A DNA stretch of 64,000 nt from an uncultured Desulfatitalea sp. (lineage in GTDB: Bacteria; Desulfobacterota; Desulfobacteria; Desulfobacterales; Desulfosarcinaceae): contig CALMNL010000004.1 of assembly GCA_937868765.1 (NCBI GenBank), forward strand, positions 1 through 64,000, written 5' to 3'. This document shows, one piece after another, positions 38,047-53,030 of this stretch. The stretch's first letter is position 1; each line of letters opens with the position of its first letter. The position numbers and the translations under genes are program-made. Under the pieces are notes generated by a model. That model worked only from the letters and a program-made list of their open reading frames with translations. It searched no databases and had not been told where the DNA came from.

Positions 38047-38205
38047 GATCCAAACGCTCTTTTAATTATGGCGCGTTAAGACTCTTCGAAGGCGATAGCC
38101 CACATCCAACGAAGCCAGTTATGCTTCCGGATCCGAGTGCGACCACCTGTCCCAGATAGAATTCTAGCCCCTTCTCTTGCAATCGAAAGTATACCAATTC
38201 CGGTC

Positions 38206-38316
38206 TCAATTTCTGTCCAGGGGACTGCGCACCCCCAATACATTCTTCTTGGCCACATGGGTGTAGATCATCGTAGTCTCCAGATCCACATGCCCCAGCA
38301 ATTGGGCGAACTCAAG
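38206..38316 (-). pseudogene. intI: C-terminal remnant of an integron integrase (IntI)
   Basis: On the minus strand a frame ending at TGA 38208-38206 reads [20 protein letters not shown] followed by [17 protein letters not shown]. This carries the tyrosine-recombinase C-terminal box with the catalytic Tyr (MIYTHV) and the GVRSPLD ending characteristic of integron integrases. Only about 36 residues remain; upstream (to the right) the frame hits a stop just past the junction with the IS91-type transposase. The orientation, with the 5' side toward the cassettes, is that of an integron. The original gene would have been about 320-340 aa. Confidence 0.75.
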
Positions 38317-38865
38317 TTCCCGGGCAGGACCGCCGAGCTGTCAGATCCCAAGGCCTTCGGCCGCCTGGTGACCGATCTTACAAAAGCCCAGTGGATCGTT
38401 TATGCCAAGCGACCCTTTGCCGGCCCGCAGGCGGTCCTGGACTACCTGGGCCGTTACACCCACCGGGTGGCGATATCGAATCACCGGATCGTATCTCTGC
38501 AAGACGGTGCCGTGACCTTCACCTACCGGGATCGCGCCGATAACGATGCGATCAAACAAATGACCCTGGACGCGCTGGAGTTCATCCGGCGCTTTTTGCT
38601 GCATGTGCTGCCCGATGGGTTCGTTAAGATCAGGTACTTCGGCTTTTTGGCTCATAGGAACCGCAAACAGGCCACCATACTGATTCGTAAACTGATCGGA
38701 CCGACACCCGACCCCATGGCTGTCCGCCAGGAAAACGTGGCCGAAATGATGCTTCGGGTGACCGGTATTGTGATCGGATTGTGTCTAAGGTGCGGCGTGG
38801 GAAAAATGAAAGCCGGAATTGAATTGGCGAAAACCGTATCGCCCCAGGCGAGAGCACCGGCATAG
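38311..38865 (+). pseudogene. Truncated IS91-family transposase (C-terminal part)
   Basis: About 184 residues from [13 protein letters not shown] to the TAG at 38863-38865. The IS91/IS801 C-terminal domain is clear: WIVYAKRPFAGPQAVLDYLG, then RYTHRVAISNHRIVSL and VTFTYRDRAD. The first 200 or so residues, including the zinc-binding N-terminus and HUH metal-binding part, are missing. The frame extends left to 38137, but that part is the antisense of the intI remnant. The junction is at about 38308-38316. It is a remnant of a rolling-circle-type element that cut the integron integrase. Confidence 0.8.
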
Positions 38866-39150: not shown

Positions 39151-39273
39151 GTTCAACTTCGTTTTATCCATCATCCTTTAAGCGGAAGAAAGTGCCCCCC
39201 AGGCAAGCAGGAGTAAATCTCCACGGCGGTACTTCTGCATAGAGGATGACGGATAAAACGCTAAATGTTCGCT
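39151..39273 (+). repeat. attC-like recombination site 0 (123 bp)
   Basis: R''-like GTTCAAC at 39151, then an inverted repeat with one mismatch in 18 (39160-39177 and 39244-39261), then R' GTTCGCT at 39267-39273. The length is similar to the long attC sites of chromosomal integrons. The R' belongs to the next cassette, whose own R'' matches it exactly. The interior forms a further imperfect hairpin. Confidence 0.55.
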
Positions 39274-39291
39274 CAAACGAGAACCACCGTG

Positions 39292-39564
39292 ATGAGATAC
39301 ATACGAATAAACGAAAGTGACCATTGGAATTTAGGGAAGTTCATTGCAGAGCGTCTAATTGAAGTAGATGATAGTGGCGCAGTACACAGAGTGATCGACC
39401 TTGACAATAAGGGTTCAATTATTGATGCAGCTCCAACCGCAGTTAATCAATATGGGGCTACTGATCATCCGCCATTATCCATGGAATCTGATTGGTCGGA
39501 AAATTTTATCATGAAAGAGGTCTTCGAAAAGCTTTGGGGAATCGCCAAAGAAACGCTTGGATAG
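39292..39564 (+). CDS. Cassette 1 hypothetical protein (90 aa)
   Basis: The ATG at 39292 lies just inside the cassette, which begins at 39268; an in-frame ATG at 39265 spans the recombination point itself and is less likely. The product starts MRYIRINESDHWNLGKFIAE and contains an acidic, beta-like middle (VDDSGAVHRVIDLDNKGSI) and a helical C-terminus (EKLWGIAKETLG). Not recognised. Base composition is much more A/T-rich than the flanking chromosome. Its attC follows 41 bases after the stop. Confidence 0.65.
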   Translation: MRYIRINESDHWNLGKFIAERLIEVDDSGAVHRVIDLDNKGSIIDAAPTAVNQYGATDHPPLSMESDWSENFIMKEVFEKLWGIAKETLG

Positions 39565-39605
39565 CATAAAGGGTTCATTTGTTTTAGCACGAGAAATAAA
39601 TGTAT

Positions 39606-39672
39606 AGCGAACCAGCGCGTGTGCTCGGACGCGCGGAAGCCCGCCGCGCGCCGGCAACGCGCACCGTTAGAC
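39606..39672 (+). repeat. attC site 1 (67 bp)
   Basis: R'' AGCGAAC (39606-39612) is the exact reverse complement of GTTCGCT at the start of its cassette (39267-39273). R' is GTTAGAC (39666-39672). The arms pair around GCTCGGACGCGCGG and CCGCGCGCCGGC with single unpaired bases in one arm, the extrahelical bases typical of attC. Confidence 0.85.
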
Positions 39673-39694
39673 GTCCATGAACTGAGGAAGGCAC

Positions 39695-40336
39695 ATGCTA
39701 CCGAATATTCATCAAACCCTTTACATGAGATTCAAGCATGAAGGCTACAGAAAGAAAGAATATACTCGGGCACCGGTTCCAAACATCGAAGAGGTCGTTC
39801 AGCTGGGTTATCTGGACGTGAACCGAACAATTAGAGGTATCGAACCAGAGCAAAGTTGGTGGTTTAGGCATTCGGTCGTTTCATTCATAAAGGATTTACT
39901 GATTTCCCCGCCCAAAAACCAGCAAAGCTTTGATCTTTTACATGAGCAGTGCTGCAAACAGTGCTTGGAGGCTGAAGCTCTCGGAAAAGCGAGAGTGCAT
40001 TACGGTCAGGCCCAAAAGCTCCTCAACATGTCGCTGAAGTATCTCTACAATGAATTTGCCGCTTACTATGGCAAAATCAACTATCTTAAGTTTCCAGACA
40101 ATAACCTGGAACATTTCTTTCACCTCCCCATAGACAGTCAAATTCGGAACCACTTAATTGAGAAGCGTTGTTTTACGAACCCCACATCTCTCCCATGGTC
40201 GCAATGGGCTTATTCTCACTATGTGAGCTTTCAGGAGCAGGTGCGAAAACGTATCAATAGTGGGTATAAGCCACTGGAAATTGATTACATTCTTTGGAAT
40301 ACGAAGGGGGCCTCTTTGTGTGAGGCCATGAGCTAA
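39695..40336 (+). CDS. Cassette 2 orphan protein (213 aa)
   Basis: The gene sits inside cassette 2 (39667-40418). GAGGAAGG precedes the ATG. The product is soluble and helical, with KARVHYGQAQKLLNMSLKYL as its most distinctive segment and a C-terminal LEIDYILWNTKG. It has no signal peptide, membrane segment or known catalytic motif. A cysteine cluster (EQCCKQCLEAE) lies near residue 88. Function unknown; A/T-rich codon use shows a foreign origin. Confidence 0.8.
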   Translation: MLPNIHQTLYMRFKHEGYRKKEYTRAPVPNIEEVVQLGYLDVNRTIRGIEPEQSWWFRHSVVSFIKDLLISPPKNQQSFDLLHEQCCKQCLEAEALGKARVHYGQAQKLLNMSLKYLYNEFAAYYGKINYLKFPDNNLEHFFHLPIDSQIRNHLIEKRCFTNPTSLPWSQWAYSHYVSFQEQVRKRINSGYKPLEIDYILWNTKGASLCEAMS

Positions 40337-40357
40337 GTATCTGAGACAAAGGAAAAC

Positions 40358-40424
40358 GTCTAACGAATAGATGCACCCGGCGTGGCGAAACAGAGCCGCC
40401 ACGCGGGTGATCATCATGTTGGCT
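40358..40424 (+). repeat. attC site 2 (67 bp)
   Basis: R'' GTCTAAC (40358-40364) is the reverse complement of GTTAGAC at the start of cassette 2; the match extends to 9 bases (ACGTCTAAC). R' is GTTGGCT (40418-40424). The central hairpin pairs CACCCGGCGTGGCG with CGCCACGCGGGTG, leaving one unpaired G in the left arm. Confidence 0.92.
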
Positions 40425-40435
40425 GAAAGAAAACA

Positions 40436-40864
40436 ATGCCTTCAATCGTATCAAACAGTGATACTGAAAAATGCCTTCGAACTATTTTAATGAAAGAGGG
40501 TTATAAACTTTCTCCTGAAAGACAGTTTGGTGAAACGGGTGTTGATGTAATTGCTTCCCGAGATAGCGATACCTTTCATATCGAAGTGATCGGCTATAAA
40601 TCGAGTGGGCCAGCACGTGCCAAGGATTTCTATGAATCCTTCTTTAGGGTTATATCTCGATTAAAAGATGGTGCAAGTAAATGTGTTATTGCAATGCCGA
40701 TCAACGCAAAAATAGGTTTACCGGCCAGGGCAAACCAGTATGGAATCGCGTGGAATAGAATTGGTTTAGCCTTTCCTGAACTTGAAATTTGGTTGGTTGA
40801 TATTGGAAAAATGGCTATTGAAAAGTCTTCCTGGCTCAAATGGGGGCAGCCAACAACTGCTTAG
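40436..40864 (+). CDS. Cassette 3 protein, probable PD-(D/E)XK nuclease fold
   Basis: 142 aa encoded in cassette 3 (40419-40915). It has the ordered motif of restriction-like nucleases: a helix, then ETGVDVIASRDSDTFHIEVI followed by GYK. This supplies Asp, then Glu-x(3)-Lys on the next strand, close to the D...ExK active site. It may be a Mrr- or HJC-like DNA nuclease and thus a defence or repair factor. The stop codon lies inside attC 3, a common cassette economy. Without structure prediction the fold remains an inference. Confidence 0.65.
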   Translation: MPSIVSNSDTEKCLRTILMKEGYKLSPERQFGETGVDVIASRDSDTFHIEVIGYKSSGPARAKDFYESFFRVISRLKDGASKCVIAMPINAKIGLPARANQYGIAWNRIGLAFPELEIWLVDIGKMAIEKSSWLKWGQPTTA

Positions 40865-40921
40865 AGTGGGGCTTTTGCTACGCTGCCGCTCCGCAAAAGC
40901 CCCTCAAGCAGGCCGTTGGGC
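40848..40921 (+). repeat. attC site 3 (74 bp)
   Basis: R'' AGCCAAC (40848-40854) is the reverse complement of GTTGGCT at the start of cassette 3. R' is GTTGGGC (40915-40921). The long stem pairs CTGCTTAGAGTGGGGCTTTTGC with GCAAAAGCCCCTCAAGCAG, leaving unpaired bases in the left arm. It overlaps the last codons of the cassette 3 gene. Confidence 0.92.
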
Positions 40922-40944
40922 GTGAAAGGCGATTTGTACCGAAT

Positions 40945-41733
40945 ATGAAAGACTCTTGGGCATCAGGTGATTCTTATGAATACTATATGGGCCGATGGAG
41001 TCGCCTCGTAGCAGAATCCTTCATTGAGTGGCTCTCTGTGTCTCCTGGATTGAAATGGTTGGATATTGGCTGTGGCTCGGGCGCATTAAGCGAGGCTATT
41101 ATCAACAATCACGAACCGGCAGCGATAACTGCCATCGATCAATCTGAAGATTTTGTTAGAACTGCCAAGAAACGACTCGGCAGCCGGGTGCATTGCAGAG
41201 TTGGTAATGCGTTATCATTGCCATTGCATAACTCTTCGGTAAACATTACCGTATCGGGGCTTGTCTTGAATTTCATTCCTGAGGCGGAAAAGGCCTTGTC
41301 CGAAATGAAGCGAGTCACTGACGACGGAGGAACGGTTGCTGCGTATATTTGGGATTATGCTGGAAAGATGGGTTTTCTCACCCATTTTTGGGACGCAGCA
41401 GTCGAAATCAAATCCGAGGCATTGAATTTACATGAAAGCAAACGTTTTCCGGATTCCGATGCCGGAGCGCTAAAAAGGTTATTTGAAAAAGCGGGTTTCG
41501 TGAATATTGAAACCACATCAATTGAGATAACCACGCATTTTCGAGACTTCGACGACTATTGGAAACCATTTCTCGGAGGTCAGGGACCAGCGCCTAGCTT
41601 CTTGTTGACTCTGGATAAAGATACAAAATATAGGCTTCGACATACACTGAAATCGCGCCTGCCCACCGGCCCAGATGGCTCTATCTCCATGGGGGCACGC
41701 GCATGGGCCGCTAGGGGGCAAATATCAAAATGA
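40945..41733 (+). CDS. Cassette 4 SAM-dependent methyltransferase
   Basis: 262 aa starting 24 bases into cassette 4. Class I methyltransferase motifs are clear: WLDIGCGSGALSEAII (motif I), AITAIDQSEDFV (motif II) and GNALSLPLHNSSVNITVSGL, then an ubiE/COQ5-like acceptor region. No N-terminal targeting signal. Substrate unknown; cassette-borne methyltransferases can modify drugs or small molecules. A near-match R'' (GCCCGAC, 41739-41745) follows the stop by 5 bases, but no full attC is visible. Confidence 0.85.
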   Translation: MKDSWASGDSYEYYMGRWSRLVAESFIEWLSVSPGLKWLDIGCGSGALSEAIINNHEPAAITAIDQSEDFVRTAKKRLGSRVHCRVGNALSLPLHNSSVNITVSGLVLNFIPEAEKALSEMKRVTDDGGTVAAYIWDYAGKMGFLTHFWDAAVEIKSEALNLHESKRFPDSDAGALKRLFEKAGFVNIETTSIEITTHFRDFDDYWKPFLGGQGPAPSFLLTLDKDTKYRLRHTLKSRLPTGPDGSISMGARAWAARGQISK

Positions 41734-42303
41734 TGAGCGCCCGACATCTATTTGGCCTTCCGTTGTCAAGAGCGTACGTCACCTATGGAATCGAATAATT
41801 TTCATTCCCAAGATTCCGATAACCGAACACAGGTCTTTGATAACGTCGCGCTCGCACTGACTTTCGCTTTTCAACGGTGGGCGTCAGATCGGCTCTAATA
41901 AGAAGCAAAAAGCAATTCTCGATCTGCACCAAACATCTATCGAAGATTTCCGCTACGCCAAAGACCTCTTTGACAAGCAGCGTGCAACCCTTAAAGGGTA
42001 GCCTTAGAACATGGTCGGTTCCCTTGATCCCGGCTCAATCAATGGTTGCGGCTTGGCATCAGAGTACCATCCAGTTATTTGGCGGCTCGGGCAAGGGGCA
42101 GAGCGAAAGCAAAACGCATCAAAACCTGCCAATTTTATGTGGGCCTGGAGGATGCCGCCAATCAATTCGAAGGAGCTCGAGGTTTTATGCCCATGCTCGC
42201 ATGAGTAGTTTTCAGGCTACAGGCTATTTGCCGGCAAGCATTGCAGGGACTTGGCCCGTAATGGCTCAGTTAGGCGATGAGCTGACATCCTCCAGCCCAA
42301 CCA
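41734..42303. other. Decayed cassette-array DNA left of the IS110 element
   Basis: 570 bases. It starts with GCCCGAC (41739-41745), one base different from the reverse complement of the cassette 4 start, so attC 4 appears broken here. Short protein-like fragments occur in different frames (SNKKQKAILDLHQTSIEDFR near 41895-41954). A GTTAGGC core at 42269-42275 could be a surviving R'. Part of this stretch must also be the non-coding end of the IS110 element. No intact gene is supported. Confidence 0.45.
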
Positions 42304-43490
42304 TCAGGAACTGAAGAACTTTTTGGCGCTGAACGCCTGGTTGTTTTTAAGCATATAGTACACCGCCCTTCCCACCTTATGGGTGAAGATGCCGTAGGAT
42401 TTCCCCGCGCTGTGATGCTTTTCGAGGCGCTGCCGATAGGCTCTGCCCAGCTCACTGCGCCTGAGAAACAGCATGGCCGCCTCGTTGATTGCATGCTTGA
42501 GGTGATGGTTGCCGATCTTTTTATTCGAGGTTCCCGCCCATTTGCCATCGGATATCTTTTCGGGACGGATCAACCGGGCATATGAGCTGAAATCCTGCAC
42601 GGTTTTGAATCGGCCGATATCACCGACTTCATACAAGATCGACAAGCCCAGAATTTGACCGATGCCCGGCATGGTGCGCAGCCGGTAAAGCGCATTCGGA
42701 TCATGCTGCAGGGCACAGCGCTCGATATGGGCTTCGATTTTAGGAAGGAGCTGATCGTAAAAATTGATCAGTTCGACGTCGGTTTGCACCGCCAATTGGG
42801 TTGCCGGATCAGCAAAGCGCTGAGCAATCTCGCGCCGATGGCATTTTTTGCAAAGGTTCTTGCCTATAACTTCCATATTGTACTGTGTATTGGTGTTCTG
42901 GATATGGGCCAGCAGCTCGGCTCTTTTGTCGACCAGGTGCATTCTGCGCCGCAACAAGTCCCGGGTTGCGCGCATCCTGGCGGGATATGGGTATGCCATG
43001 GGCAGATTGCCGCCTCCTAAAAGGGCGGCAATCTTGTAAGCGTCGATCTTATCGTTTTTGGTTTTACCGCCGTGGATGGCTTTCATATACAGGGCATGGC
43101 CCAGGACAAAAGGAATTTTATGTTCTGAGCAAAGATCCGCCAGCCAGTACCAGCAAAAAACGCACTCGACGCCGACCACCACATCCTCAAGGAAGGGAAA
43201 GATCAGCTCGAAAAATAGCTCTGGATCGGTGTCGATGTTCTGGTGCAACTTGGTTCGCCCCTTTTGGTCCAGGATGCACAAATACATTTTCCTTGCGTGT
43301 AGATCGATGCCACAATAATATTTGTGCTGTTCTCGATAAAATTGCACGGCTTGGCCTCCTTTGGGTGAATGGGTTTGGAGTTAGTGGGTAATTCCAATTT
43401 ACTCGTTCACCTAATGGAAGGCCATAACCAGTATCATTTTGCTCCACCGGATTCGGGCCAAAAAGCGGCCCTCTCTGGTGAGCAATGCGT
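42270..43490 (-). mobile_element. IS110-family insertion sequence (ends not resolved)
   Basis: Contains one complete transposase gene plus non-coding flanks. IS110 elements lack standard terminal inverted repeats, so the limits given are only approximate. Integron-like GTTAGGC on the left and GTTGTGC (43489-43495) on the right lie near the possible ends, suggesting insertion in or next to an attC. Confidence 0.55.
42304..43347 (-). CDS. IS110-family DEDD transposase
   Basis: 347 aa from a GTG at 43347 with AGGAGG upstream, full length for the family. The N-terminal RuvC-like domain shows YYCGIDLHARKMY (first Asp), VVGVECVFCWYW (Glu) and KNDKIDAYKIA (Asp pair). The C-terminal Tnp20 domain has LRTMPGIGQILGLSILYEVG and a serine-containing tail (AGTSNKKIGNHHL). 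All key residues appear intact, so the element may be active. Elements of this family carry a structured non-coding RNA guide in one flank. Confidence 0.93.
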   Translation of the reverse strand: MQFYREQHKYYCGIDLHARKMYLCILDQKGRTKLHQNIDTDPELFFELIFPFLEDVVVGVECVFCWYWLADLCSEHKIPFVLGHALYMKAIHGGKTKNDKIDAYKIAALLGGGNLPMAYPYPARMRATRDLLRRRMHLVDKRAELLAHIQNTNTQYNMEVIGKNLCKKCHRREIAQRFADPATQLAVQTDVELINFYDQLLPKIEAHIERCALQHDPNALYRLRTMPGIGQILGLSILYEVGDIGRFKTVQDFSSYARLIRPEKISDGKWAGTSNKKIGNHHLKHAINEAAMLFLRRSELGRAYRQRLEKHHSAGKSYGIFTHKVGRAVYYMLKNNQAFSAKKFFSS

Positions 43491-43606
43491 TGTGCTTAGA
43501 AGTGAATATCTGCCCGAATTTCTATTTTTGTATTAAAAAGATGGTATAGAAAATTACGGGGCGGAACATCTGTTGCGCCTTCCCATCTAATCCTAAGCTG
43601 CAAATC

Positions 43607-52813: not shown

Positions 52814-52824
52814 GATCGGCCGTT

Positions 52825-53030
52825 GATATGCTTTCGGGTCCCCTGATGGGTAAATAGGGAAACCGGTGCGAAGCCGGTGCGGACCCGCCGCTGTATGCCT
52901 GCCCGTTTCCGTCAGGAATCGGGAACCTTCACGGCCGCGTATGCCACTGCCGCAGACCACTGCGGCGGGAAGGCCGCCGTGACGGCAGGCAAGCCAGAAG
53001 ACCTGCCCGAAAGCACATGACTTGGTGGTG
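52825..53030 (+). ncRNA. Cobalamin (AdoCbl-type) riboswitch
   Basis: The leader contains the hallmark parts of a class I cobalamin riboswitch in order: GATATGCTTTCGGGTCCCC, AAACCGGTGCGAAGCCGGTG followed by CGGACCCGCCGCTGT (B12 box region), and GCCAGAAGACCTGCCC near 52992. It sits upstream of cobT with a terminator between them, so cobalamin binding should favour termination and shut off cobT. Confidence 0.95.

What the first reader, a model, noticed from the sequence alone, without database searches (positions are those of the whole stretch)
39267..40921. Cassette-by-cassette covariation of attC core sites, including a non-canonical core
Each cassette's left core and its own R'' are exact reverse complements: GTTCGCT/AGCGAAC, GTTAGAC/GTCTAAC (9 of 9 with flanks) and GTTGGCT/AGCCAAC. 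Two of these depart from the GTTRRRY rule yet keep complementarity. This pairing is expected only if R'' and R' came from one circular cassette, so it marks true excision units and shows an integrase tolerant of unusual cores.
Basis: seen in the sequence. Interest (0 to 1): 0.6.

Follow-up and report, generated by a model that had tools for sequence, protein, structure and literature searches.

The report
Ordinary gene cassettes of a decayed integron
The matching ends of these small mobile genes are real, but they are a published, general property of integron gene cassettes; here the cassettes sit in a broken integron of an environmental bacterium that also keeps a complete integrase gene elsewhere in its genome.

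Summary
At 39267-40921 three cassettes each have a left core that is the exact reverse complement of the R'' box at their own right end. Counting a second array of the same genome, beside a complete intI, 6 of 7 cassettes with both borders readable match exactly; the seventh (window cassette 4) has one mismatch. A blind attC scan of 20 integron regions of the same order gave 16 exact own-cassette pairs of 57. Shuffling gives 1.1, the pairing inside one integrated site gives 1, and non-integron DNA gives 0 of 29.

The explanation is the textbook one: R'' and R' of one circular cassette pair in the folded bottom strand. Pairing past 7 nt, and conservation limited to AAC/GTT, are in print (PMC2727003). 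None of the 16 exactly paired relatives fits GTTRRRY, so such cores show nothing about unusual integrase tolerance. Cassette 3 recurs in another family with both cores intact and different flanks.

The array is an integron remnant: an intI 3' relic lies beside it, and cassette 4's attC is split between R'' and L'' by an IS1111-type element, also present in the second array. I rate the finding ordinary, the array a new member of a known kind.

The parts
38209..38319 (-). 3' relic of an integron integrase gene (C-terminal ~37 aa)
   Evidence: TIGR02249 hit 38212-38457, 38.9 bits (below the cut-off of 265), 1 TGA; best blast piece 97% over 32 aa to a 429-aa-frame IntI of the same genus in G293
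38137..38865 (+). truncated IS91-type transposase, C-terminal part only
   Evidence: NF033538 157.7 bits, profile 200-354 of 356; PF04986
39152..39273 (+). long inverted repeat ending in the first core; possibly an older attC-like site or part of the old attI region (undecided)
   Evidence: bottom-strand fold -22.9 kcal/mol with an 18-bp outer stem; no shuffle control run
39267..39273 (+). left core of cassette 1, GTTCGCT
39265..39564 (+). cassette 1 ORF, 99 aa, no family
   Evidence: no match at E 1e-8 in the other 394 of 395 phylum genomes searched
39606..39672 (+). attC1, AGCGAAC ... GTTAGAC; last 7 bases are the left core of cassette 2
39695..40336 (+). cassette 2 ORF, 213 aa, no family
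   Evidence: no match at E 1e-8 in the other 394 of 395 phylum genomes searched, none in the plasmid collection
40358..40424 (+). attC2, GTCTAAC ... GTTGGCT; last 7 bases are the left core of cassette 3
40436..40864 (+). cassette 3 ORF, 142 aa, no family hit
   Evidence: matches in 3 of 291 genomes of the order, the own one included
40848..40921 (+). attC3, AGCCAAC ... GTTGGGC; last 7 bases are the left core of cassette 4
40840..41733 (+). cassette 4 ORF, SAM-dependent methyltransferase; likely true start is the in-frame ATG at 40945, inside the cassette (read)
   Evidence: PF08241 E 1.1e-17
41739..41745 (+). R'' of cassette 4, GCCCGAC (6 of 7 complementary to GTTGGGC)
41746..43438 (-). IS1111-type insertion sequence splitting attC4 between R'' and L''; exact ends uncertain by some bases
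   Evidence: subterminal inverted repeats TGGCCTTCC; same element in the C7/C11 array; relatives
42304..43347 (-). DEDD transposase of that element
   Evidence: NF033542 185.7 bits, PF01548 and PF02371
43439..43495 (+). rest of attC4 (L'', loop, L', core GTTGTGC 43489-43495)
   Evidence: hairpin, 0 of 100 mononucleotide shuffles as good

Best explanation
This is the cassette array of a partly decayed chromosomal integron. Each cassette carries one attC whose two outer boxes, R'' and R', are self-complementary. When the cassette is integrated, IntI cuts between G and TT of R', so the TTNNNN of its own R' ends up at its left border while R'' stays at its right border. The left core and R'' of one cassette therefore match, and the two boxes of one integrated attC generally do not. 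In the excised circle the boxes rejoin and close the outer stem of the single-strand hairpin that IntI recognises. The match is thus a footprint of circular excision units. Shown here: the match, its recurrence in other arrays of the order, hairpin folding, recurrence of one cassette elsewhere with the same borders, and a complete IntI elsewhere in the genome. Inferred: that these cassettes were moved by an IntI, and that the C7 IntI could still move them in trans.
For: 6 of 7 cassettes of this genome with both borders readable match 7 of 7 or more, the seventh 6 of 7; crossed pairings give runs of 2-5 nt. 16 of 57 in relatives against a shuffle mean of 1.1 (0 of 20,000 reach 16), 1 of 57 for the same-site and 1 of 45 for the skip-one control, 0 of 29 in non-integron DNA. 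In circle form the R helix closes in 5 of 5 sites, gaining 2.9-6.4 kcal/mol; this follows from the exact match and is an illustration, not independent evidence. Complete IntI at C7:446481-447425, 476.5 bits against a cut-off of 265. intI relic on the expected side and strand of the window array. Cassette 3 in G087: same GTTGGCT/AGCCAAC pair, homology bounded by the cores apart from 3 nt past R'', different neighbours. intI-class matches at E 1e-60 in 148 of 291 genomes of the order, 134 over the curated cut-off.
Against: No excision was observed. Cassettes 1 and 2 have no homologue outside the own genome in the 395 phylum genomes searched, so their mobility rests on structure alone. The blind scan is noisy: 41 of its 57 pairs are not exact, many probably false sites, 3 of the 20 regions gave no site at all, and the 16 exact pairs come from 6 regions of 5 genomes. 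Bottom- and top-strand fold energies hardly differ, so folding does not prove strand choice. The attC stem of the cassette 3 homologue in G087 is unlike the window's and weak (-7.5 kcal/mol), and that copy of the gene has a stop codon inside.
Confidence: 0.95

Rival explanations
1. The 7-mer pairs are chance complementarity in a region rich in short palindromes.
For: Four of seven bases are free once AAC/GTT is required, so a single pair occurs by chance about once in 256; window cassette 4 is not an exact pair.
Against: 6 of 7 exact in this genome with crossed runs of 2-5; 16 of 57 against 1.1 in relatives; 0 of 29 in non-integron DNA.
Confidence: 0.01
2. The pairs are kept by selection on the integrated DNA (for example a transcript structure) rather than as the footprint of a circle.
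For: The two boxes flank each gene and could in principle pair over the gene in RNA; this was not tested.
Against: They lie 332-1555 bp apart with the gene between, at the IntI crossover motif, next to hairpins of attC shape.
Confidence: 0.02
3. The window array is fully fossil: its attC sites are relics that no integrase in the cell can use. (This is compatible with the best explanation of where the pairs came from.)
For: Only an intI 3' relic lies nearby; IS91-type debris and an IS in attC4; cassette 4's R'' has lost one base of the AAC.
Against: attC1-3 are structurally intact, and a complete IntI is encoded on C7. The IS1111-type element occurs nearly identically in both arrays (99% over 1500 bp and 100% over 206 bp), so one event touching both is fairly recent.
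Confidence: 0.4

Closest known systems
Chromosomal (sedentary) integron gene cassettes and attC sites
   Same: GTT/AAC boxes, R''/R' complementarity reaching 7-10 nt, bottom-strand hairpin, cassette-sized spacing (PMC2727003 passages)
   Different: Nothing essential. 2 of the 7 left cores of this genome fit GTTRRRY (GTTAGAC, GTTGGGC), and 0 of the 16 exactly paired cores of relatives.
CALIN (attC cluster lacking an integron integrase)
   Same: Several attC sites and no functional intI in the window
   Different: An intI 3' relic is still beside the array, so the origin is visible
IS1111-attC insertion sequences (ISKpn4, ISPst6, ISPa21 kind)
   Same: DEDD transposase, subterminal inverted repeats, long non-coding region downstream of tnp, insertion at one end of attC in one orientation (PMC11187229 and PMC11616780 passages)
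   Different: 24 of the 28 loci found bear Desulfobacterota or deltaproteobacterial names, mostly 61-67% identical, range over all 40-74%. In 13 of 25 loci shown the left end carries GTTATGG (CCATAAC on the attC top strand), a 14th has GTTATGA; 11 of 25, among them 8 of Desulfosarcina alkanivorans, do not show it there, nor do the four plasmid relatives read.

Membership tests
Integron gene cassette array | attC sites with AAC and GTT triplets and hairpin-forming bottom strand | tested here: met
   three sites in the window; 5, 0 and 0 of 200 dinucleotide shuffles fold as well
Integron gene cassette array | R''/R' complementarity within each cassette | tested here: met
   exact in 3 of 4 window cassettes and 6 of 7 in the genome; the exception has one mismatch
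Integron gene cassette array | extrahelical bases on the R''-L'' arm | tested here: met
   unpaired bases on the 3' arm of the bottom strand in 5 of 5 predicted folds; attC2 also has 2 on the other arm
Integron gene cassette array | linked functional intI | tested here: not met
   only a ~37-codon 3' relic near the array; a complete intI lies on contig C7
Integron gene cassette array | attI site at the first cassette | tested here: inconclusive
   the sequence before 39267 holds a long inverted repeat, not recognisably an attI
Integron gene cassette array | integrase-mediated excision to a circle | not testable with these tools
   needs an experiment or reads
CALIN | at least two attC sites without an intI | tested here: met
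   three complete attC sites plus one split by an IS; intI relic only; threshold of 2 as given in PMC12444791 (passage)
IS1111-attC group | IS1111-type transposase with subterminal inverted repeats and downstream non-coding region | tested here: met
   NF033542 185.7 bits; TGGCCTTCC at both ends; about 560 bp downstream of tnp
IS1111-attC group | insertion in attC in one orientation | tested here: met
   both own copies sit between R'' and the hairpin. Relatives: expected left core upstream of the R'' junction in 7 of 11 readable junctions; significant hairpin at 9 of 17 left junctions, 7 of 15 without the own copies. Copies without such ends were not tested.
IS1111-attC group | seekRNA matching both target strands | not tested
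   no RNA data and no target match was sought
IS1111-attC group | phylogenetic placement with the named group members | not tested
   no tree with ISKpn4, ISPst6 or ISPa21 was built

The most novel reading that the evidence does not exclude
In Desulfobacterota the IS1111-type element inserts between R'' and L'' and its own left end supplies a CCATAAC box next to L''. The split attC may then still be a usable site, so that the IS becomes a passenger inside the mobile cassette instead of freezing it. The element would be adapted to ride in cassettes.
Probability: 0.1. Interest if true: 0.45.

Novelty: new member of a known kind. Interest (0 to 1): 0.18.

Why it matters
As a finding it is a clean natural illustration of how cassettes carry their own border signature, and it offers a cheap way to call true cassette units in arrays where attC stems are too divergent for models. 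The one open point is the attC-splitting IS: one 2024 study says that experimental evidence on how IS1111-group insertions affect integron function is limited (PMC11616780, passage). This genome holds two attC insertions of nearly the same element to test.

Tried and rejected
I first suspected that the integrase relic at 38209-38319 came from an IS91-associated tyrosine integrase, because an IS91-type transposase lies next to it. Rejected: its closest relatives are IntI-class frames of the same genus (97% over 32 aa in L133), the IS91 fragment finds no match at E 1e-4 in the seven loci fetched around such frames (L133-L139), and the integrases in the G274 regions that do hold IS91-type genes match the relic at only 52%.

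I tested whether TTTGATAAGAKGTT, the joined flanks of the IS, is a common intact target. It occurs in 5 of 60 genomes, 5 places, against 2 for the reversed control, and not in the own genome. So I could not decide which of these bases belong to the IS and which to the target.

Searches for cassette 1 and 2 homologues in 395 phylum genomes found only the own copy. Plasmids gave none for cassettes 2 and 3 (cassette 1 not searched there), and viral contigs none for cassette 3 (close relatives only). PHROGs and PADLOC gave nothing for cassettes 1-3; the PADLOC hit of cassette 4 (mad2) is a generic methyltransferase match. The best PDB match of cassette 3 is E 0.59, no hit.

The strand control is uninformative: the opposite strand gives the same count (16 of 57), as expected for palindromic sites. 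In some searches I dropped CTCGAAC/GTTCGAG palindromes (five sites of L106) before counting, as they are not attC by pattern. In one search I gave 13 of the 28 named IS loci plus 8 unnamed and the two own ones; the others (Desulfosarcina alkanivorans copies, L031, L038, L041, L045, L049, L051, L052) were left out, mostly because no such ends were seen or the locus is partial. In one search, 8 of 17 IS junctions gave no qualifying hairpin, and two of the nine that did (L036, L037) are weak; its shuffles keep base content only.

Full report
1. The observation. Complementary runs are 7, 9 and 8 nt. Two of the three left cores break GTTRRRY. Between them lie three attC sites of 67, 67 and 74 bp with strong hairpins; 5, 0 and 0 of 200 dinucleotide shuffles fold as well.

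2. More than chance. The same genome has a second array beside a complete integrase gene on contig C7 (476.5 bits, TIGR02249). Its three cassettes pair as GTTCGGT/ACCGAAC, GTTAACT/AGTTAAC and GTTATGC/GCATAAC, with runs of 8, 9 and 10 nt. Window cassette 4 has one mismatch (GTTGGGC / GCCCGAC). So 6 of 7 cassettes with both borders readable match exactly; in two of the seven (window cassette 4 and the third C7 cassette) the attC is split by an IS. The 42 crossed combinations of the seven give runs of 2-5 nt.

3. A wider test. TIGR02249 matches at E 1e-60 occur in 148 of 291 genomes of the order, 134 over the curated cut-off. I fetched 20 regions beside intI genes of 15 genomes and scanned them with a hairpin rule that ignores the four variable core bases; three regions gave no site. 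Among 57 neighbouring site pairs, 16 match in all four variable positions (8 in three, 10 in two, 17 in one, 6 in none). Re-dealing the R'' boxes gives a mean of 1.1, and 0 of 20,000 shuffles reach 16. The two boxes of the same integrated site match in 1 of 57, and a core with the next R'' but one in 1 of 45. The 16 come from 6 of the 20 regions (L091, L093, L095, L103, L106, L109). With stricter settings the counts are 15 of 42 and 14 of 35, and six non-integron stretches of the own genome, read on both strands, give 0 of 29, 0 of 16 and 0 of 5. None of the 16 cores fits GTTRRRY; in the own genome 2 of 7 do.

4. How it works. Cassettes are bounded by core sites at which IntI acts (PMC3053210, passages). 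The crossover lies between G and TT of the core (PMC3518468, passage). So the TTNNNN at the left border of an integrated cassette is its own R', and R'' remains at the right. Restoring the own left core in silico closes the R'/R'' helix in 5 of 5 sites, with 2.9-6.4 kcal/mol gained; two of the integrated forms (attC3, c7_attC2) already close part of it. The closure follows from the exact match and adds no independent proof. Unpaired bases lie on the R''-L'' arm in all five, where extrahelical bases are expected (PMC2727003, passages); attC2 also has two on the other arm. Movement itself was not observed.

5. The cassettes as mobile units. Cassette 3 matches in 3 of 291 genomes of the order, the own one included. 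One homologue (77% protein identity) lies in G087, a genome of another family. There the gene is again bordered by GTTGGCT (L141:1150) and AGCCAAC (L141:1579), with a 9-nt run. Upstream homology starts at the core; downstream it ends 3 nt past R''. Neighbours and attC stem differ, and the gene there has an internal stop. The other homologue (53%, G267, L142) showed no convincing attC in the scan. Cassettes 1 and 2 were found only in the own genome among 395 phylum genomes.

6. The setting. Left of the array, on the strand and side where intI is expected, is a relic of its 3' end (38209-38319). Its best blast piece is 97% identical over 32 residues to a 429-aa-frame IntI of the same genus, and it is joined to a truncated IS91-type transposase. 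The array is therefore a CALIN with a visible origin. Cassette 4 is a methyltransferase whose attC is split: R'' at 41739-41745, then an IS1111-type element, then the rest of attC at 43439-43495. Nearly the same element (99% over 1500 bp, 100% over 206 bp) splits an attC at the end of C7, and its other part begins contig C11. A 12-bp overlap between the two contig parts suggests that this copy carries a further insertion and that C7 and C11 adjoin; this is inference.

7. The element in relatives. A genome scan returned 28 loci, 24 with Desulfobacterota or deltaproteobacterial names and 4 of Bacteroidota kinds. I examined 23 loci (13 of the 28 named ones, 8 unnamed, the window and C11). In 13 the R'' junction could be read by my pattern; in 10 it could not, because the end is absent or differs. 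Leaving out the window and L115 (apparently the same sequence as L025), 7 of 11 junctions have the matching left core upstream within the DNA held, where 7-mer frequency alone predicts about 2 matches (my arithmetic on 33,580 bases searched); three of the 11 are from one genome. At the other junction, 9 of 17 (own copies included) have a significant attC-like hairpin. IS1111 elements that target one end of attC are known (PMC11187229, passages; PMC11089894, passages; PMC11616780, passages). The defining papers, Tetu and Holmes 2008 and Post and Hall 2009, were seen only as references; the former is not held and the latter was not looked up. In 13 of 25 relatives shown, the end next to L'' reads CCATAAC on the attC top strand, as it does in the window (a 14th relative has TCATAAC); this resembles an R'' box. 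11 of 25, among them 8 copies in Desulfosarcina alkanivorans, do not show it at that place, and neither do the four plasmid relatives read. It may be coincidence of the inverted repeat.

8. What is known. A 2009 paper states that attC sequence conservation is limited to AAC and GTT and that for most cassettes self-pairing extends to 9-11 nt (PMC2727003, passages). An annotation tool of 2009 scores R'/R'' matches to find attC (PMC2674596, passages), and a published cassette core, GTTAGCG, departs from GTTRRRY (PMC3518468, passage). I searched the paper library for attC core motifs, for Desulfobacterota integrons, for IS1111 in attC and for inverse core sites and make no claim that anything here is absent from print.

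9. Verdict. Observation confirmed; interpretation right on excision units, wrong in treating the cores as exceptional. A new member of a known kind, of low interest apart from the split attC.

Noticed in passing
window 52819-53024: Cobalamin riboswitch, 99.4 bits, the only Rfam hit of the window at gathering thresholds.
   Followed up: no
window 43561-43590: GCGGAACATCTGTTGCGCCTTCC resembles the R''-IS junction of the element upstream (GACATCTATTTGGCCTTCC), about 70 bp after core GTTGTGC; perhaps the remnant of a second attC-inserted element (seen).
   Followed up: no
window 39152-39273: Inverted repeat with an 18-bp outer stem ending at the first core; could be an old long attC or part of attI.
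   Followed up: partly
G000 C7 right end and C11 left end: The C7/C11 copy of the IS1111-type element seems itself interrupted by another insertion with a 12-bp overlap, so the contigs probably adjoin; C11 continues the array with a cassette whose product looks glyoxalase/VOC-like by eye (not searched), and no R'' was seen by eye or by the scan.
   Followed up: partly
L106 (G049:C1:3967760-3986700): Five scanned 54-bp sites with identical CTCGAAC/GTTCGAG ends in an integron region, not attC by pattern; a dispersed palindromic repeat.
   Followed up: no
G274:C1: Five IntI-class matches in one closed genome; the regions fetched beside four of them also hold IS91-type transposase genes.
   Followed up: no
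L110-L112 (plasmids of Vibrio campbellii, Pseudoalteromonas, Alteromonas): IS relatives with TTGATACT at the left end and GTGTTA at the right junction, the same layout with a different inverted repeat.
   Followed up: partly
L026-L030, L042, L043, L047 (Desulfosarcina alkanivorans): Eight copies of a 66%-identical relative with an identical, different left region and no attC-like junction in the 160 bp shown; its target was not examined.
   Followed up: no
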